A DNA stretch of 64,000 nt, taken from positions 69,675 to 133,674 of the forward strand of contig JAHFBF010000004.1 in the NCBI GenBank assembly GCA_023250195.1, in the 5' to 3' direction. The first letter of the stretch is position 1; the number at the start of each line of letters is the position of its first letter. This DNA is from Candidatus Melainabacteria bacterium. GTDB taxonomy: Bacteria; Cyanobacteriota; Vampirovibrionia; 2-02-FULL-35-15. The position numbers were made by a program, and so were the translations under genes. Positions 51,634 through 61,530 of this stretch are shown here, piece after piece. The notes beneath the pieces are model-generated. The model had not been told where the DNA came from, made no database searches, and worked only from the letters and a program-made list of their open reading frames with translations.

Positions 51634-54261
51634 CTATCCTCTACTTATTGGTTTCTTCTCTACAGGTCCTAATTCGTCAAGCCTTCTTGACGATGTAACC
51701 CGATTTCTTCCTTCTTTTTTTGATAGGTACATTGTATCGTCAGCGGCTTTTAATATTTGTTCTTTATTTCTTGCTTCATGAGGCGTTCCGCTTACACCGA
51801 TACTTGCGCTAAGCGGGCCCCATTGAGGATGTATAGTTCTATTTAAGGTATCTAAAATTCTCTTTGCAATTAATTCTGCAGATTCTATATTTGTCTCAGG
51901 AAGGAGTATTGCAAATTCATCTCCGCCATAACGTGACACGATATCCATTTGTCTGAGACATTGTTGGAGTTTTCCACTGACAAGAGTTATTGCTTCATCT
52001 CCTGCACTATGACCGAACTTGTCGTTAATTGGCTTTAGATGATCAAGATCAATCATAATTACAGATAAATCAGATTCAGTTCTTTTTGCACGCTCAACCT
52101 CGTGGTGAAGTGCAGTTTGAAAGTATGCATGGTTATAAATGTTTGTAAGGCTGTCTCTCTGAGCCTGATGTTCTACTCTTGCAAAAAGATCAGCATTTAA
52201 TACTGCTACTGAAGCTTCAGATGCAACTCTCTTTGCAAACTCAATTTCTCTATCCGTAAATCTTCTGTTTCTGTCACACTGATGTATGCATAGAGAACCA
52301 ATTACCTGACCGCGTGCTACCAGCGGTACAGCAAGAAAACTTTTTAACTGTATTATTTCAAGAATTGTTTTTAGAGGATCTTCAGCATTTTTGTATTTTT
52401 CCTGTATGTCAGGTATATGAAGAATTGAATTTGCACGTTCAACTTCAGGAAGATCTTTTAATGATTCCAGCCATGCTTGCTCAAATTCCAGAATTAAATC
52501 AGCAGCCTTATTTAAATTTTGTTCTTTGTTACTTATGTATTCTTGCTCTGTAGCAAGAACTAAAAGCGGCTTAACACTTTTTAGTCTTCTTATAAAACAC
52601 CTGCTGGCTCCCAGTATTTCGCCTAAGTCCTGTGCCGCCCGTGCCATAACTGTGGAGATATTTAAGCTGTCTCTAATTGCAGAGCTTACCTGGTGTAAAA
52701 GATTTATTTGTCTTTCTGTCTGCTGAACATGCTGATATAACTCAGCCTGTGACAGTGCCATTTCTACCTGATCAGTAATTGCTTCAATCAACTGTGTCTC
52801 TGAATTTGTCCAGCTTCTACGCTGATCAAACTGTGCCAAAACTAAAATGCCAATTGTTTTATTGCCTTTATTTAATGAACATGCGAGATAAGATTTACAT
52901 CCGATTTTATCTAACTCTTCTGAGCTTTCAGGTAGATAATTTGATATGGTAATGCTCTGTGTAATTGGGTCAGGGATTAGGTTTTTTTGTCCTTTTGAAA
53001 TGTCGTAGTTAAGCTTTAACTGTGCCAGCTTATATGAAAATTCATCTTTTGTTGCCCAGATTGATTTAGCTGTAAAACCAGAATCATCATCTTTTCTTAT
53101 AAATGCACCACAGGCATTTACACCAAAGACCTGTCCAATTTCCCTGGCTGTTTTTTCAAGAACTCCTTCTACTTCTAATGTGTCACGGATCATTGTAACG
53201 ATTGAGTTTAATAAAAACTCTCTCTGAGCTGTTGAAAGGCTTTCTTCATAAAGATTTGCCTGGTTTAGTATAACGGCAAGGTGTCCAGCAATATCCTGCG
53301 TAATCCTTAAGTCTTCAGTTGTTGCCTCGGTAGAGGTGCTGATTCTTGTGCATATAATTGCTCCAAGAAGTTCATTGCGGATGATAACAGGCAATATAAA
53401 AAATAAAGACGGTTTTGCATTATACAAAAACACTCTGCTTATTCGCTTTATGTTTTTATTTTTAAGTGTCATGTACTGATTCTTATACAGGAGTTTTACT
53501 ATTGGATTATTACTGCTTACTTTATGAGTAAACCCTTTCAATGAATGCTTTTCCTCGATCACAATTTCTTGAATAATTTCCAGTCTTTTTTCTTTCGGAG
53601 TCCATTTTGCAAAATAAATATCATCAAGTTTTAAAAAATTATGAATACCCTTTAAAACAATGTCAATTGCTTTCTCAGGCTTTAAGATCCCTCTGAGAGA
53701 ATTGGAAAGTCTTGACAGGAGTAATAATCTTTCATCCTTTGCTTCAACCTGTTTTGTAAGATCGGCTTCTTCAATAATTTTTATTATGTAATTTAAAATA
53801 AATAAAAGAGAGTTTCTTTCTTCCGGTGAATTAATTCTCTTTGGATTACTGATTAAGATTATTCCGAAAATTTGTTTTGCATATGGAGATATAATTGGAT
53901 AAACAAATGTATTTAAATCTGTATCCGTAAGATTTTTTATAGCCAGTTCAGAAATAGGAATCAGACTGTTGTAAAATCTTGAATCTTTTACAGTAATCTG
54001 ATTTGCAATGTTTTCAAGAACATGTCCTAAAAAAGCAAATTGTTTTGTACTGGATTTTGAGTTTACTAAATTGATCTGTTCATTTGCAAAGTTTGCATAT
54101 ATTGCAATACTTTCAATTTCAAAAAGTGACTGAATAAAATTAACCAGAGTACTGATTTGTTCTTTTGTATCCGAAGAACTGGACTGTAATTCAAGAATTT
54201 TATTTAAAAGAATAGATTTTATATCGTTCTCTGATTTTTTTTCTTTTGATTCTCTTTCCAT
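51634..54261 (-). CDS. Multi-GAF diguanylate cyclase
   Basis: 875 residues, cytoplasmic with no transmembrane helix. Three to four GAF-type sensory units follow one another (for example SRVFLYNAKPSLFFILPVII, ACGAFIRKDDDSGFTAKSIW and IIQLKSFLAVPLVARGQVIG), joined by helices. The C-terminal GGDEF domain is complete: RDSLTNIYNHAYFQTALHHE, VIMIDLDHLKPINDKFGHSA, RYGGDEFAILLPETN. The inhibitory I-site RxxD is present five residues before the motif (RQMDIVSRYGGDEF). It should make c-di-GMP under product inhibition, in response to an unknown ligand or redox state. Bracketed by inverted 117-base repeats. Confidence 0.93.
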   Translation of the reverse strand: MERESKEKKSENDIKSILLNKILELQSSSSDTKEQISTLVNFIQSLFEIESIAIYANFANEQINLVNSKSSTKQFAFLGHVLENIANQITVKDSRFYNSLIPISELAIKNLTDTDLNTFVYPIISPYAKQIFGIILISNPKRINSPEERNSLLFILNYIIKIIEEADLTKQVEAKDERLLLLSRLSNSLRGILKPEKAIDIVLKGIHNFLKLDDIYFAKWTPKEKRLEIIQEIVIEEKHSLKGFTHKVSSNNPIVKLLYKNQYMTLKNKNIKRISRVFLYNAKPSLFFILPVIIRNELLGAIICTRISTSTEATTEDLRITQDIAGHLAVILNQANLYEESLSTAQREFLLNSIVTMIRDTLEVEGVLEKTAREIGQVFGVNACGAFIRKDDDSGFTAKSIWATKDEFSYKLAQLKLNYDISKGQKNLIPDPITQSITISNYLPESSEELDKIGCKSYLACSLNKGNKTIGILVLAQFDQRRSWTNSETQLIEAITDQVEMALSQAELYQHVQQTERQINLLHQVSSAIRDSLNISTVMARAAQDLGEILGASRCFIRRLKSVKPLLVLATEQEYISNKEQNLNKAADLILEFEQAWLESLKDLPEVERANSILHIPDIQEKYKNAEDPLKTILEIIQLKSFLAVPLVARGQVIGSLCIHQCDRNRRFTDREIEFAKRVASEASVAVLNADLFARVEHQAQRDSLTNIYNHAYFQTALHHEVERAKRTESDLSVIMIDLDHLKPINDKFGHSAGDEAITLVSGKLQQCLRQMDIVSRYGGDEFAILLPETNIESAELIAKRILDTLNRTIHPQWGPLSASIGVSGTPHEARNKEQILKAADDTMYLSKKEGRNRVTSSRRLDELGPVEKKPISRG

Positions 54262-54341
54262 GTTAAATATTCCATTCCCACTATGACTTTTTATTAATCA
54301 ACTGATTACATTATGAGGTAATGAAAAGTATAACTTTTTAC

Positions 54342-54458
54342 GTCATTGCGAGGAAGTTCTGCAAGAACTGACGAAGCAATCTCACAAACGTTAGAAGATT
54401 GCCACGCTCGCCTCGCTCCGGCGGAGCGGGTCAGCTCTTCGAGCCTCCTCGCAATGAC
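54342..54458. repeat. 117-base repeat with GTCATTGCGAGG ends, right copy
   Basis: Starts GTCATTGCGAGGAAG and ends CCTCGCAATGAC. Its reverse complement follows the copy at 51508-51624 along most of the length (GACCCGCTCCGCCGGAGCGA, GGCGAGCGTGGCAATCT, AACGTTTGTGAGATTGCTTC). Between the cyclase start and tldD. Confidence 0.8.
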
Positions 54459-54549
54459 ATGAAACGTTATTACTGCGATATACTATTTTTGATTGCTGTT
54501 TATGACTTTACTTAAAGATATTTAACAGGGAGTGGTTGTCGGGGAACAA

Positions 54550-55929
54550 ATGAAAGACAAGCTTGTAGAGTTAGTAAACAAATACAAGAAAAAAGCTGAT
54601 TACCTTGAGATAAGACTTGAGGAAAATAAAACAAAACAAATCCGTTTTTTTGGTAAATCTTTAGATAGTTTAAATCAGTCAGAAGCATATGGAGGCTATG
54701 TAAGGAGTTGTTATAAGGGCAGATGGGGTTTTTGTTCGTTTAATGATGTTGAAAATCTGGAGAAATATGTTGAAGAAACTATACATCAATCATTACTTCT
54801 TGGTTCTGAAGAAAATGAAAAAACGATTTTAGCTAAGGTAAACCCTGTAAGTGGGAGCTACCAGATTAAGTTATCCGGAAAAGATCCAAGGAACGTTTCA
54901 CTTACAAATAAAGTTGAACTGTTTAAATACTATAATGATTTGATTAATCTTTACTCTGACAAAATTACAGCTTCAACAACCAGATATGTTGAAAAGATTC
55001 AGGCAGTAACTTTTTTAAATTCTGAAGGGACTTGCCTTGAGCATGGTTGGATTGATATGGAAGCAAGATTTTCAGCAACCAGTCAGAAAGATGGAATTGT
55101 CCAGGTAGCCCAGGAATCTTTAGGTTCACGGAAAGGATTTGAAGAAATAGAAAACTTAGATGAGCGGATAAAGCTGATGTCTAAAAGAGCAGTTGATCAA
55201 TTAGAATTAAAACCACCGAAAGCAGGTACTTATACAGTTGTAATTGATCCGATATTAACAGGACTCTTTGTTCATGAAGCTTTTGGACATTTATCAGAGG
55301 GGGACTTTATATTTGATAATCCGGCTATGCAGGAGTTTATGAAGTTTGGGAAAAAATTTGGAGAGAAGTTTTTGAATATTTTGGATGGCGGAAAGATTCC
55401 TAATCACAGAGGTTCTTTTTTATTTGATGATGAAGGAATATCTGCTCAGAATACCTCTTTAATAAAGGAGGGAATTCTTGTAGGCAGGTTACATAGCCGT
55501 GAAACAGCAGGAAAATTAAATGAAAAACCTACTGGCAATGCCCGTTGTCTAGATTATAGATTCCCGCCGATTGTTCGAATGACAAATACATGGATAGAAC
55601 CGCAGGATAATTCACCTGAAGAGTTGATCTCTGATATTAAGTTTGGAATCTGGGCTGGTAACTGGCTTGGTGGGCAGACAAATGGTGAGATGTTTACCTT
55701 TGCAAGTGGTGAAGCAAAAATGATTAGACATGGAGAACTTGCAGAACCTATAAAAGATGTAAATCTTACTGGAAATGTTTTTCAGACATTAAAAGACATT
55801 GATGGAATAGGGAATGATATGTACTGGGATGAATCTGGTGGATGCGGGAAATCAGGTCAGAGTGGGCTTTCTGTAGGTGTTGGTGGACCGTCAATAAGGA
55901 TTAAAAATGTTGTAGTGCCAGGAGAATAA
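54550..55929 (+). CDS. tldD: TldD/PmbA family metalloprotease
   Basis: 459 residues from ATG at 54550 with GGGGA 4 bases upstream (a GTG at 54532 would add six residues). The zinc motif is FVHEAFGHLSEGDFI (HExxxH), characteristic of TldD, the active subunit of TldD-TldE, which trims peptides such as microcin B17 precursors and degrades CcdA. A glycine-rich end GGCGKSGQSGLSVGVGGPSI is also typical. A TldE partner is not in the window. Confidence 0.93.
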   Translation: MKDKLVELVNKYKKKADYLEIRLEENKTKQIRFFGKSLDSLNQSEAYGGYVRSCYKGRWGFCSFNDVENLEKYVEETIHQSLLLGSEENEKTILAKVNPVSGSYQIKLSGKDPRNVSLTNKVELFKYYNDLINLYSDKITASTTRYVEKIQAVTFLNSEGTCLEHGWIDMEARFSATSQKDGIVQVAQESLGSRKGFEEIENLDERIKLMSKRAVDQLELKPPKAGTYTVVIDPILTGLFVHEAFGHLSEGDFIFDNPAMQEFMKFGKKFGEKFLNILDGGKIPNHRGSFLFDDEGISAQNTSLIKEGILVGRLHSRETAGKLNEKPTGNARCLDYRFPPIVRMTNTWIEPQDNSPEELISDIKFGIWAGNWLGGQTNGEMFTFASGEAKMIRHGELAEPIKDVNLTGNVFQTLKDIDGIGNDMYWDESGGCGKSGQSGLSVGVGGPSIRIKNVVVPGE

Positions 55930-55935
55930 TAAAAA

Positions 55936-56064
55936 TTAACTAGCCTTTTTATTGTGTTTTTCTTTTAGCCTTTTAGTCATATACCAATTCAAATATGCAA
56001 TACCGCTTAAAAAAAATGAAAGTAAAAATAAAAACCAAAGAAAACCAAGTATATGTGAATTCAT
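55936..56064 (-). CDS. Very small membrane protein (42 residues), cassette 1, second gene
   Basis: Too short for a usual gene finder. The product MNSHILGFLWFLFLLSFFLS plus GIAYLNWYMT and a basic tail KRLKEKHNKK: one transmembrane helix with a positively charged C-terminus. The start overlaps the stop of the preceding gene by ATGA. A gene of the same size, topology and place occurs at 58654-58785, downstream of a paralogue of the preceding gene. This conserved arrangement supports it as real. Confidence 0.65.
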   Translation of the reverse strand: MNSHILGFLWFLFLLSFFLSGIAYLNWYMTKRLKEKHNKKAS

Positions 56065-56285
56065 TCCTCATTACCTCTCTGAGCAATTTCAAATCCTATC
56101 TGGATAAGAATTGCTCCACAGCAAAATAATACCATAGCTCCAAGTGCATTTATGTAGAAATTAAATGGGTTATATATAAAGCCTTTTTCAAGTAATGTTA
56201 ATCCTAATCTTCCAGCAGGTGTCATTAATGAAAGTCCTATAATTTTAAAAATCTCTGCTTGATATTGATATCCATTGAAATTCAT
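56061..56285 (-). CDS. Small membrane protein (74 residues), cassette 1, first gene
   Basis: MNFNGYQYQAEIFKIIGLSL, MTPAGRLGLTLLEKG, then a second hydrophobic segment (INALGAMVLFCCGAILIQIG) and a charged end FEIAQRGNEE. Two helices with a short loop. The segment IIGLSLMTPAGRL aligns with IAGFALLTPFGKL of the protein at 58421, so they are paralogues. No family recognised. It is followed by a 42-residue membrane protein with a 4-base overlap. Confidence 0.7.
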   Translation of the reverse strand: MNFNGYQYQAEIFKIIGLSLMTPAGRLGLTLLEKGFIYNPFNFYINALGAMVLFCCGAILIQIGFEIAQRGNEE

Positions 56286-56461
56286 GTTCAGAGTATATGA
56301 AATGATTATTCTAAAATCAAGAATAAATTTTCAATATCTTTATAAACTTGATACTGTAGGTTACATGGAATAATAAAATTTATTTAATCTTTGCAAGTCT
56401 AAATTGAAAACTTATATTTTTTTATGACTAAATGCTAATAACTATATTAAACTTTTATAAA

Positions 56462-56553
56462 AACGAAGGTTTGCTATAAGCGCAAACCTGAGTGACGGAA
56501 AGTATCGCATAAAAATAGCAAAATAATCTGCGTAGCAGTTATTTTGCGTTATT
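56462..56553 (+). repeat. Two-hairpin leader element, copy 7 (no gene start after it)
   Basis: AACGAAGG, hairpin 1 AGGTTTGC/GCAAACCT (56467-56489), TGAGTGACGGAAAGTATCGC, hairpin 2 GCAAAATAA/TTATTTTGC around CTGCGTAGCAG (56518-56547), then GTTATT. It is the closest relative of copy 1 but lies on the plus strand between two minus-strand genes, so it is not a leader of any gene seen. Apart from it the 56286-56632 gap has no feature that I recognise. Confidence 0.75.
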
Positions 56554-56632
56554 AAATAAAACTAAACAAATATTGAAACTTGGATAAAAATTCAAAAAGT
56601 ATAAATTTTATTTTCATATTTTACTCCTTTAC

Positions 56633-57901
56633 TTAAGGGACAACAGGTCCTGGTCCGCTTGCAGCTGCAAGATCATCAATATCGGTTAACAGCTTTGACA
56701 TTTCTTTTGCATTAACTCCAAGAAAGTCTATTGCCAAACTTAGAGGTCCATACAACCATCCAAACCCTGGAATTTTTGCAAGATATTTAGTAAAAAACAT
56801 TCTTCCTACAGTATTAAGCATAGGGAGAAGGCTTATAGCACCTTTAGGTAGCTTTCTAAGAAGTGACATTCCCCAATCTGCAACTGAAAGAACTGTTTTT
56901 TGTGTGCTGTCTAATTTAGAAACATCAGCTGGCTGTTTCTGAATAAGTGAGAATAAAGCACCTTTAAAATCAGGAGTAAAAATCTTAGTTCGTAAATAGT
57001 CTGATGCATCACTACCTAAGTCTAGTCCCATCGCTTTCATTGCCATGGCTGGAAGGCTGCCGCCATTATTAAATTCTCTTTCCAGCATTGCTATTATCTG
57101 GTCTGAGGCACTATCTACTAAGCTATTCATTGATTGCTGTTTAGCAAAATCTGCTTGAGGAATTGGATCATGATTGCCTTTCACATGGTCTACCAAATGT
57201 GTAAGATCAGCGTGTTCCTGATCACTAAGAGTTCCTCCTTTTTCTAACTTTTCAATTGAATCTCCTAAAATCTTAAAATCACTTCCTCCTTGAAATTGAA
57301 GTTCATGGTGCAATTCTTTTAAGTTAAGAAGATTTGCTATATCGAAACCAGCAGGCTTACCAATTAAATAGGTAAGAAGACTTCCTATATCTCTAGTTGA
57401 CATATTTTCAGAAAGTTTAAATTTCGCTCCTGCGCGTTTTGCTATTGCATCTAAGAGATCTGTCGATGGAGATTTAGTGCTTGAAGAAGAAGGGGCAGCT
57501 GATAAGTCTGTATGTATACTAGCTAAATGTTTTTGTAATTCTTTTAATTCACGCATTGTTTGAGGATCAGTTAAATCGATTTCATTCTTAAATATGCCAT
57601 TTACAATAGCATCCAAAGAATTCCACTGATCGTCATGTATTTTTCCCTTTAATGAAGCTACTGCTTGAAAGAGGTCTTGAAATTGTTTGGGAGTTAGAAC
57701 TCCGTTAACGCTTGCTATTCCTGATGAGCCACTCACTAAACCAAATAAATCAGCAAGTGTTTTTACGGCATTAGTTTCACCTGTACCGGCAACAACAGTA
57801 GGTAAAAATTCAAGAGCTGCTTTAGCTAGTGTTCCTCCAGTGCTAGATGTTAGTAGGGCCTTTGCGGCCATTCCAAATAAAGGTGCTAAACCAACAGACA
57901 T
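56633..57901 (-). CDS. Unknown 422-residue protein
   Basis: Not recognised. The N-terminus MSVGLAPLFGMAAKALLTSS is mildly hydrophobic without a clear signal cleavage site; residues 330-400 hold amphipathic or membrane-active segments (MSLLRKLPKGAISLLPMLNT, IPGFGWLYGPLSLAIDFLG). The central part is helical with Leu-rich repeats of 20-25 residues, without cysteine. AGAGGA lies 7 bases before the ATG. It may belong with other lineage-specific proteins here (17495, 22352). Confidence 0.6.
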   Translation of the reverse strand: MSVGLAPLFGMAAKALLTSSTGGTLAKAALEFLPTVVAGTGETNAVKTLADLFGLVSGSSGIASVNGVLTPKQFQDLFQAVASLKGKIHDDQWNSLDAIVNGIFKNEIDLTDPQTMRELKELQKHLASIHTDLSAAPSSSSTKSPSTDLLDAIAKRAGAKFKLSENMSTRDIGSLLTYLIGKPAGFDIANLLNLKELHHELQFQGGSDFKILGDSIEKLEKGGTLSDQEHADLTHLVDHVKGNHDPIPQADFAKQQSMNSLVDSASDQIIAMLEREFNNGGSLPAMAMKAMGLDLGSDASDYLRTKIFTPDFKGALFSLIQKQPADVSKLDSTQKTVLSVADWGMSLLRKLPKGAISLLPMLNTVGRMFFTKYLAKIPGFGWLYGPLSLAIDFLGVNAKEMSKLLTDIDDLAAASGPGPVVP

Positions 57902-58061
57902 TTTATTCCTCTAAAATATTCCTATTTTTAAAAGAAGCTATTTATAGCTTCTATATCTACAAAGAAGGATTAAGGAAAAAATTTATAAAGGAACGGTTAA
58001 AAATCGAGGATTGGTTAAAGGATGGTTAACGAATTTGTAACTGTTCACGTCATTCAAACTC

Positions 58062-58197
58062 ATCTCAAAAGTCCTACTATGGACTTTGTTTGTAAAACAA
58101 GTAGGTATTCTTTTTTGTGTCATTCCCGCGAAAGCGGGAATCCAGATAGGTACGCTATTGTGTAACTGTCTGGATTCCGGGTCAAGCCCGGAATGAC
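58062..58197. repeat. MITE-like repeat related to the element at 8862
   Basis: The left end ATCTCAAAAGTCCTACTATGG (58062-58082) matches the terminal repeat at 8862/9057. Inside are GTCATTCCCGCGAAAGCGGG (from 58119) and CTGGATTCCGGGTCAAGCCC ending GGAATGAC (to 58197). The right terminal repeat is not found. The order of the two inner blocks is reversed relative to the first element. The rest of the 57902-58391 gap has no recognised gene. Confidence 0.7.
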
Positions 58198-58391
58198 ATT
58201 TAATTTTCCATGTAACTGTAGGTATCATGGTCTTTGGACCTGGTTTGATAGAATTCTTTTTGATGATTGCAGAAGAACAAAAATATGTTACTGCTTAGCT
58301 AAGGTAATATTTCCAAGTAAACCATTTATCTAGTAAGATTTTGACGATTCATTCGGTAAAATCTGGAAAATGTTATAAAAGACAGATCAGG

Positions 58392-58440
58392 AGCACATTG
58401 CAAAGCCCGACAAGCGAAGAATGAGCAAGGAGGGCGGTAG
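58392..58440 (+). repeat. 49-base dispersed repeat, copy B
   Basis: AGCACATTGCAAAGCCCGAC, AAGCGAAGAATGAGCAAGGA, GGGCGGTAG. The reverse complement is at 36017-36066. The start codon of the frameshifted membrane gene at 58421 (ATG in GAATGAGC) is within this repeat; the other copy has ATA there. Confidence 0.65.
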
Positions 58441-58661
58441 GCAGAAACAAAAATATAGAGCTTATACTTATAACATAGCCGGGTTTGCATTATTAACTCC
58501 ATTTGGGAAACTAATATTGGATTTAATTACTACAGCAGAAATACTGGAAAAATTTGGCCCATTGGCATTTATTGGTTGTCTCACTGTGCATAATACTTGC
58601 AATAGCTGGGTGTAGATCTATTGCTATCGGCCGTGATATATTGGACATGAATTATGAATGA
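58421..58661 (+). pseudogene. Frameshifted small membrane protein, cassette 2, first gene
   Basis: Frame 1 gives a peptide with YNIAGFALLTPFGKLILDLI, alike to the 74-residue protein at 56061-56285, but then leaves a hydrophobic pattern after EILEKFG. From about 58560 the +1 frame continues the second helix, LLVVSLCIILAIAG, and a charged tail RSIAIGRDILDMNYE to the stop at 58659-58661, which is the expected end. A one-base insertion near GGCCCATT (58556-58563) or a sequencing error explains this. The next gene starts inside the last codons. The start codon lies in a dispersed repeat, so the original N-terminus may have been lost. Confidence 0.55.
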
Positions 58662-58785
58662 AGGAATTAATACAACTACTTTTTTATATATATACTTTGG
58701 TGTGATTATATTTGGCATTATACTTTTAAGTTCGTTTTTTCATTTCATGCTCCGAAATCCAAAGAGAAAAAGGAAGATTAATTGA
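58654..58785 (+). CDS. Very small membrane protein (43 residues), cassette 2, second gene
   Basis: MNEGINTTTFLYIYFGVIIF followed by GIILLSSFFHFMLRNPKRKR and KIN: one transmembrane helix and a strongly basic tail. Same size, topology and gene order as the 42-residue product at 55936-56064. It overlaps the end of the preceding frame by 8 bases. No independent ribosome site is seen, so translation should be coupled. Confidence 0.6.
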   Translation: MNEGINTTTFLYIYFGVIIFGIILLSSFFHFMLRNPKRKRKIN

Positions 58786-58836
58786 TCTCTTCCCTCTTTT
58801 TTCTGTTATCATCTTTTAAGTTTGGAGTTGTACGAT

Positions 58837-60248
<1,412 letters not shown>

Positions 60249-60285
60249 CAATTAACAATTGATAATTGACAATTAGAACTGAGCA

Positions 60286-61530
60286 ATGATACATCAGTTC
60301 TTAAAGTATAAAGCCCGTGATCACGCTGCAGTTCGTACGCAGGAATATTTATTTAATCAATTATTTCCTTATATTGGCAACAAGAGGAAATTGTTACCAC
60401 TTGTGTGGGAAGCTATTTTAAAAACTGGAATTACAGAAGGTCTATTCGTTGATTTCTTTAGTGGGAGCGGTGTAGTTTCAAGACTTGCAAAGAAGAACGG
60501 ATTTAAAGTTATTGCAAATGATTGGGAGCCTTATTCTTTTTTTTATAACCATGCTTATATAGAACAAAACAAATATCCCCTGTTCAAAGGACTTGACGGA
60601 TTAGAAAAAGTTTATGAGTATTTAAATAATTTAGAAGGGAGTCATGGTTACATAAGTGAGTATTACTGCCCCTGGGATGATAAGAAACCTGATATTAAAA
60701 AAGAAAGAATGTTTTTTACTCACAAAAACGGAATGAAAACAGATGCGATGCGGGAAAAAATATTTGAATGGGAAAAGGAAGAGAAGATAAATTTAAAAGA
60801 AAAAGCAGTTTTACTTGCATCCCTTATGTACAGTGTAAGTTACATAAGCAATACAAGCGGTGTATTTAAAGGATTTCATAATGGCTGGGGAGGAAAAACA
60901 GGCACTGCTCTTTATCGGATTTTAAGTGATATTAAACTAATCCCACCGGTTTTATTTAACAATAAAGAAAAGAACAAAGTTTATCAGATGGACTCCCAGC
61001 TGCTTGCTGAGACTTTAAATGGAAAAGAACAAATAAGCATTGCATATTTGGATCCGCCTTATAACCAGCATCCTTACGGGAGCAACTATCATATTTTAAA
61101 TACGATAGCTCTTTGGGATAAACCTGCAATTAATAAATGTATTTTAGTAAACGGGAAGAAAAAAAATAAAAGTGCTATAAGAACTGACTGGAGAACTGAA
61201 AGAAGATCTGCTTATAACTATAAAAATGAGGCTGTAGACGGGCTGGAGAAATTAATTAAAACTATTAATTCTGATTATATTCTGCTTAGTTATAGTACTG
61301 ATGGGCATATGAGCTTAAAAGATGTCCTTGAAATTTTTGCAGATCATGGGAAATTGTCTATGGTGTCAAAACCTTATAAGCGTTATCGTGTAAGTACTCC
61401 ACGTATGTCAGAAAAACCATATAATGTAGAAACTGTTTTAATTCTGGATAAAAATAAAACAAGTTCAAAAAATGTTATTAAGAAGTTATGGGGTGAGTTT
61501 TTAGAGCAGGATAGGTGGTTAAACAAGTAA
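60286..61530 (+). CDS. DNA N6-adenine methyltransferase, D12 (Dam-like) class
   Basis: 414 residues. LFPYIGNKRKLLPLVWEAI binds SAM (GNK motif of D12 enzymes), VDFFSGSGVVSRLAKKNGF is the FxGxG motif, and ISIAYLDPPYNQHPYGSNYH contains the catalytic DPPY. It methylates adenine in a short DNA site; which one cannot be read. No restriction gene is adjacent, so it may be an orphan regulatory methylase or what remains of a restriction-modification unit. The next gene starts 1 base after the stop. Confidence 0.9.
   Translation: MIHQFLKYKARDHAAVRTQEYLFNQLFPYIGNKRKLLPLVWEAILKTGITEGLFVDFFSGSGVVSRLAKKNGFKVIANDWEPYSFFYNHAYIEQNKYPLFKGLDGLEKVYEYLNNLEGSHGYISEYYCPWDDKKPDIKKERMFFTHKNGMKTDAMREKIFEWEKEEKINLKEKAVLLASLMYSVSYISNTSGVFKGFHNGWGGKTGTALYRILSDIKLIPPVLFNNKEKNKVYQMDSQLLAETLNGKEQISIAYLDPPYNQHPYGSNYHILNTIALWDKPAINKCILVNGKKKNKSAIRTDWRTERRSAYNYKNEAVDGLEKLIKTINSDYILLSYSTDGHMSLKDVLEIFADHGKLSMVSKPYKRYRVSTPRMSEKPYNVETVLILDKNKTSSKNVIKKLWGEFLEQDRWLNK

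What the first reader, a model, noticed from the sequence alone, without database searches (positions are those of the whole stretch)
55936..58785. Two paralogous two-gene cassettes of tiny membrane proteins
Minus strand 56285-56061 plus 56064-55936, and plus strand 58421-58661 plus 58654-58785. Each has a two-helix protein with (I/L)xGxxLxTPxG(R/K)L followed by an overlapping 42-43-residue single-helix protein with a basic tail. Order, sizes, topology and overlaps are the same, while the sequences have diverged. This looks like a functional membrane pair, unassigned in any system I know; possibilities include a regulator of a membrane complex or a toxin-like pair.
Basis: partly seen in the sequence, partly recalled or inferred. 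Interest (0 to 1): 0.65.

Follow-up and report, generated by a model that had tools for sequence, protein, structure and literature searches.

The report
Multi-copy membrane-protein pairs tied to DNA uptake
In some uncultured non-photosynthetic relatives of cyanobacteria, a previously undescribed pair of tiny membrane proteins exists in many scattered copies, each with the same DNA switch that sits in front of the genes for taking up and recombining foreign DNA, which suggests these pairs act, perhaps as a toxin and its antidote, when a cell imports DNA.

Summary
Cassette 1 is intact. Cassette 2's first gene is broken: true start 58263, split by a ~160-bp insert with 11-bp direct repeats, then frameshifted; its second gene is intact. 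These are two of about 15 copies in this Candidatus Melainabacteria (Caenarcanales-type) genome. Gene A (~72 aa, helical hairpin) is followed by gene B (~40 aa, one helix) in 75 of 76 family-f1 copies by automatic criterion, and in all on inspection. The family occurs in 20 of 289 class genomes sampled, all in two families, and matches no known protein family. Nearly every f1 cassette has a palindrome TGTAACC-N3-GGTTACA plus an extended -10. The same element precedes dprA, comM, recJ/pilC, mutL and the ssb and recA operons. In the second family, cassettes and comM share another element, TGACCCC(T)TAAAA. The cassettes therefore most likely belong to a natural-transformation regulon. A and B distances correlate, both are constrained in most close pairs, and A is often broken while B survives; the reverse was not seen. 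I favour a competence-timed membrane toxin/antidote-like conflict module. The regulon link is well supported; the toxin reading is inference.

The parts
56061..56285 (-). Gene A, copy 1: 74-aa two-helix protein with GLSLMTPAGRL motif, intact
   Evidence: ORF; member of the A profile; orthologue 51% identical in L026; hairpin model pLDDT 85
55936..56064 (-). Gene B, copy 1: 42-aa single-helix protein with basic tail, overlaps gene A by 4 nt
   Evidence: ORF; B found after every intact f1 A
56349..56365 (-). Degenerate copy of the regulon palindrome (3 mismatches of 14), TGTAACCTACAGTATCA on the minus strand, 80 bp before gene A copy 1
   Evidence: Pattern scan (by itself not above chance in the window, but its position matches the other cassettes)
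56292..56297 (-). Probable -10 element TATACT, 6 nt before the ATG
   Evidence: Sequence read directly; same place as the conserved -10 of other cassettes
58211..58227 (+). Degenerate palindrome of copy 2 (TGTAACTGTAGGTATCA, 3 mismatches)
   Evidence: orthologous L026 copy has TGTAACTTACGGTTACA 53 bp before its ATG
58246..58254 (+). Probable extended -10 TGATAGAAT of copy 2
   Evidence: compared
58263..58661 (+). Gene A, copy 2: pseudogene, split by an insert and frameshifted in the second helix
58276..58456 (+). Insert of about 160 bp inside gene A copy 2, bounded by direct repeats AACAAAAATAT (58276-58286 and 58446-58456)
58654..58785 (+). Gene B, copy 2: 43-aa single-helix protein with basic tail, intact although its gene A is broken

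Best explanation
The AB cassettes are a lineage-specific, amplified family of two-protein membrane modules expressed as part of a natural-transformation (competence) regulon. In family f1 a palindrome-binding activator, not identified, would sit at about -42 in place of a -35 element and recruit polymerase to an extended -10. It would switch on dprA, comM, recJ/pilC and the ssb and recA operons together with the cassettes. A (two-helix hairpin, both ends predicted cytoplasmic) and B (one helix, N-out/C-in by the positive-inside rule) form a cognate pair. Most likely A is the membrane-active, costly member and B restrains it. The module would then be a competence-timed toxin/antidote-like conflict element that limits transformation or punishes its own replacement by incoming DNA. 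Shown by sequence: the family, the pairing, constraint on both genes, promoter elements shared with transformation genes, loss of A with B retained. Inferred: induction during competence, activator mode, A-B contact, the toxin role of A and the conflict function.
For: Palindrome before 69 of 75 f1 cassettes against 14 of 290 other ORFs; same element before dprA in 10 of 11 and comM in 8-9 of 11 f1 genomes, recJ/pilC, mutL, ssb, recA and yraN/xer loci. In f4 the palindrome is absent but cassettes and comM share a different element, or the cassette lies directly upstream of comM. A and B distances correlate, Mantel r 0.49, 0 of 2000 permutations. Intact A always with B in f1; eight f1 loci with A broken and B intact. 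Copy number variation, tandem arrays and decay. Precedent for a competence-regulon toxin-antitoxin pair whose toxin gene is often deleted: H. influenzae toxTA (PMC6957337).
Against: No expression data; the regulator is unknown; comEC lacks the element and f4 dprA lacks the f4 element. A is a larger mutational target than B, so part of the asymmetry is expected. Constraint on B is weak in some pairs. No toxicity data and no match to a known toxin family. The A-B correlation partly reflects shared descent.
Confidence: 0.4

Rival explanations
1. The pairs are accessory parts or tuners of the transformation machine itself: small membrane subunits that adjust DNA entry through the pilus/ComEC apparatus or anchor recombination proteins at the membrane.
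For: Co-regulated with dprA, comM, recJ and pilC; cassettes sit beside comM, and in the recJ-pilC gap in two genomes (L018, L073); both proteins constrained in most close pairs.
Against: Copy number 3 to 20 or more, strong divergence between copies, frequent decay, and absence from all sampled genomes of other families of the class are unusual for a machine part; transformation genes themselves are single-copy and conserved.
Confidence: 0.22
2. The cassettes are selfish genes that merely borrow the competence promoter to spread by transformation, like the Y1/RAYT transposases and ORF6N genes that share it; the proteins have no role in transformation itself.
For: The same element precedes Y1 transposases, ORF6N, RhuM/Fic, BRO and DUF4160 genes; a Y1-type transposase also has the f4 element; cassettes are scattered between unrelated housekeeping genes.
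Against: Several cassette positions are conserved between species (polA, comM, tldD-purA loci), so they do not move often; no transposase or recombination site belongs to the cassette.
Confidence: 0.15
3. The palindrome regulon is a DNA-damage or recombination-stress response (in the manner of the Deinococcus RDR/DdrO regulon) rather than a competence regulon, and the pairs are damage-induced membrane proteins such as TisB-like growth inhibitors.
For: recA, ssb, mutL and recJ are in the regulon; odd-length palindrome; damage-induced small membrane toxins are known (general knowledge).
Against: dprA, comM and pilC are transformation genes and comM is the one member retained in f4; lexA has its own different box; no uvr gene was seen at the own-genome sites examined.
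Confidence: 0.12
4. A is a holin- or pore-like protein and the pair drives self-lysis or fratricide of competent cells to release DNA.
For: Size and topology of A recall two-helix pinholins (general knowledge); competence-linked killing is known in streptococci (PMC4739721).
Against: No holin family match beyond one weak hit in 1 of 69 members; no lysin, leader peptide or exporter linked to the cassettes inspected.
Confidence: 0.08

Closest known systems
Haemophilus influenzae competence-regulated toxin-antitoxin operon toxTA (CRP-S regulon; PMC6957337)
   Same: Two-gene operon controlled by a competence promoter; the first gene is often broken while the second is kept
   Different: ToxT/ToxA are cytoplasmic RelE/HTH-type proteins in one copy; A and B are both predicted membrane proteins of no known family, in many copies
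Haemophilus CRP-S/Sxy competence regulon
   Same: One palindromic operator in front of dispersed transformation genes such as comM (general knowledge for most members)
   Different: Different palindrome (TGTAACC-N3-GGTTACA, 17 bp, odd length), restricted to one bacterial family; regulator unknown; comEC not included
Streptococcal competence-induced two-peptide bacteriocin CibAB
   Same: Competence-regulated pair of small peptides
   Different: No leader peptide or exporter seen; A and B look like integral membrane proteins
Small membrane toxins of type I TA systems (TisB, Hok, Ldr)
   Same: Very small hydrophobic proteins, dispersed copies
   Different: Partner is a second protein, not an antisense RNA; no Rfam match in the region

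Membership tests
Competence (natural transformation) regulon | Shares a regulatory element with transformation-specific genes (dprA, comM) | tested here: met
   f1: palindrome before cassettes, dprA (10/11) and comM (8-9/11). f4: shared element with comM, or direct adjacency
Competence (natural transformation) regulon | Also controls the DNA-uptake channel comEC | tested here: not met
   comEC present in 11/11 f1 genomes; no site upstream
Competence (natural transformation) regulon | Induced in competent cells | not testable with these tools
   Uncultured; no expression data
LexA/SOS regulon | Same operator as lexA | tested here: not met
   lexA has TTGTACAAATGTACAA; no palindrome there, and no such box in the regulon loci scanned
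Protein toxin-antitoxin pair | Two-gene cognate pair | tested here: met
   Pairing 75/76 in f1 and correlated distances
Protein toxin-antitoxin pair | Toxin never kept without antitoxin; antitoxin may survive alone | tested here: inconclusive
   Eight f1 loci with A broken and B intact, none the other way, but A is the larger target
Protein toxin-antitoxin pair | Toxicity of one partner and neutralisation by the other | not testable with these tools
   Needs expression
Type I TA | Antisense RNA antitoxin | tested here: inconclusive
   No Rfam match in 54000-60300; unknown RNAs not excluded
Known protein families (Pfam, NCBIfam, PHROGs, PADLOC, PDB), incl. holins, DUF1634, CBASS 2TM effector | Profile match at a convincing threshold shared by several members | tested here: not met
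   Only scattered weak hits in 1-3 of 69 A members and no PDB match; B of the two window copies scanned against Pfam only, no hit over cut-off

The most novel reading that the evidence does not exclude
A new class of competence-timed membrane conflict modules: lineage-specific, amplified to tens of divergent copies each with its own competence promoter, in which A blocks or punishes DNA import or membrane energisation and B gives copy-specific protection, so that recombination which replaces a cassette is selected against.
Probability: 0.25. Interest if true: 0.85.

Novelty: new variant of a known kind. Interest (0 to 1): 0.68.

Why it matters
It gives a first sequence-based view of what looks like a transformation regulon in non-photosynthetic relatives of cyanobacteria, with an operator that can be used to find its regulator, and it exposes an undescribed protein-pair family as its most numerous member. 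If the pairs are conflict modules, they would be selfish or policing elements timed to DNA import, which bears on the debated role of transformation in conflict with mobile elements (PMC4774983, PMC11472951).

Tried and rejected
DUF1634 relatives: suggested to me by the PxG motif, but only 1 of 69 members matches, weakly (E 0.0075). SOS/LexA regulon: own box is different. REP elements of the RAYT transposases as the origin of the palindrome: disfavoured by the fixed spacing to an extended -10 and ATG and by conservation before dprA, comM and recJ in different genera. Type I TA with antisense RNA: no Rfam match. Phage, plasmid or viral origin: no match with the queries used. Foldseek against viral models: best E 0.39, uninformative for a hairpin. 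comEC as a regulon member: rejected. No paper found on transformation regulation in Melainabacteria with the terms used.

Full report
What is in the window. Copy 1 is intact: A 56285-56061 and B 56064-55936, minus strand. Copy 2 is not as read: the claimed first gene is 241 nt long and spans two frames. The congeneric genome G002 has the same locus order (tldD, AB minus, 448-aa protein, AB plus, purA; L026), with an intact 70-aa A in place of copy 2. Against it, the window's A2 starts at 58263, is split by an insert bounded by AACAAAAATAT repeats at 58276 and 58446, and is frameshifted in the second helix. B2 is intact. In G001 the apparent orthologue of copy 1 (L199; its B resembles B1) has lost the first helix of A but kept the promoter palindrome and B.

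A family. tblastn finds 11 places in the own genome and a profile finds 15. Relatives carry 3 to 20 or more copies (lower bounds, since at most 20 candidates per genome are scored). Of 289 class genomes sampled, 20 have the family, all in families f1 and f4. Named relatives are Candidatus Melainabacteria and Candidatus Caenarcanales assemblies. A has near-invariant G17, P23, G25 and G57 and is modelled as a two-helix hairpin, mean pLDDT 85. B is about 33-65 aa with one hydrophobic helix; in f1 it ends in a basic tail, in f4 often in LDPNKSFLENFF. In f1, 75 of 76 intact A genes are followed by a B by an automatic criterion that fires after 12 of 560 other ORFs; the exception, L030, has a B just below the hydrophobicity limit. 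In f4 the automatic criterion missed 17 because it demands a basic tail; the f4 loci show a B after nearly all, and three apparent gaps inspected by eye contain one. No A member has a convincing family or PDB match, and searches of phages, plasmids and viral contigs found nothing.

Both genes are constrained and linked. In pairs of cassettes above 50% identity in A, nonsynonymous change is rarer than synonymous for A in every pair and for B in most; B approaches or slightly exceeds 1 in a few. A and B distances correlate (Mantel r 0.49, none of 2000 permutations as high). Shared ancestry contributes to this, but it means partners are not freely shuffled.

The promoter element. Upstream of A lies TGTAACC-N3-GGTTACA, often twice at about 30 or 50 bp spacing. 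Of 75 f1 cassettes, 69 have it with at most 2 mismatches within 150 bp, against 14 of 290 other ORFs, several of which are themselves divergent from a cassette or are regulon genes. It occurs 4-34 times in each of 11 f1 genomes, never in the reversed-pattern control and never in 10 genomes of other families. In the commonest arrangement it starts about 51 bp before the ATG and is followed by an extended -10 about 6-8 nt before the ATG, with no -35. That places its centre near -42 from a transcript starting at or close to the ATG, as for class II activators; this is inference.

The regulon. The same element precedes dprA in 10 of 11 f1 genomes and comM in 8 of 11 strictly (9 allowing one mismatch), mostly at the same distance. 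It lies in the recJ-pilC gap in 5 of 5 loci examined, over the mutL start codon in 6 of 6 loci (two of them the same own-genome locus), ahead of a secreted-protein/ssb pair in 3 of 3, ahead of a secreted-protein/recA pair in 4 genomes, and ahead of yraN/xer in 3 (identities by Pfam). comEC is present in all 11 but lacks the element. lexA carries its own, different box, so this is not the SOS regulon. The element also precedes Y1/RAYT transposases, ORF6N, RhuM/Fic, BRO and DUF4160 genes.

An independent check. Family f4 has cassettes but no palindrome in the two genomes searched. Its cassettes carry TGACCCC(T)TAAAA about 55-70 nt upstream of the domain start. Of 43 distinct TGACCCC occurrences in the f4 DNA fetched, 34 precede cassettes, 3 precede comM and 1 a Y1-type transposase (the last by sequence resemblance only). 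This DNA was chosen around cassettes, dprA and comM, so the proportions are not genome-wide. In further f4 genomes a cassette lies just upstream of comM in the same orientation. f4 dprA lacks the element. Cassettes and comM thus changed promoter element together between families, which is hard to explain unless they are co-regulated.

Mechanism. Copy-number variation, tandem arrays with decayed members (about 20 copies in 15 kb of G023:C28), lineage restriction and cognate pairing are features of conflict modules. In f1, A is broken with B intact in window copy 2, L014 (no standard start codon), L017, L018, L021, L029, L036 and L199; an intact A without B was not found. The larger size of A explains part of this. 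H. influenzae toxTA, a competence-regulon toxin-antitoxin pair whose toxin gene is often deleted and whose unopposed toxin prevents DNA uptake, is the nearest precedent in logic (PMC6957337). I therefore favour a competence-timed toxin/antidote-like module, at about 0.4 for the full statement and about 0.85 for regulon membership alone. Accessory machine parts, passive selfish cassettes, a damage regulon and lysis remain open.

Noticed in passing
window 56633-57901 (-): 422-aa protein between the two cassettes, no Pfam match; a 448-aa protein lies at the same place in the congeneric genome (L026).
   Followed up: partly
window ~58115-58200: REP-like repeat (cattcccgcgaaagcgggaatcc ... ggattccgggtcaagcccggaatgac) just upstream of the copy-2 palindrome.
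   Followed up: no
L080, L009, L180, L183, L204, L212: The regulon palindrome overlaps the mutL start codon (GTG or ATG in its centre), so its binding protein might repress mismatch repair while it activates recombination genes.
   Followed up: partly
L078, L081, L082, L084, L086, L088, L089, L200, L207, L209: Y1/RAYT transposases, ORF6N, RhuM/Fic, BRO and DUF4160 genes carry the same palindrome; HUH transposases act on single-stranded DNA, which is what transformation imports.
   Followed up: partly
L240 (G023:C28:3500-22500): Tandem array of about 20 AB cassettes, many with their own TGACCCC element, including near-identical and truncated copies.
   Followed up: partly
L052 (G006:C12): Two cassettes 2.8 kb apart with identical A proteins but B proteins only 81% identical: a recent duplication in which B changed first.
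   Followed up: partly
L098: lexA with a cyanobacterial-type box TTGTACAAATGTACAA upstream, separate from the palindrome regulon.
   Followed up: yes
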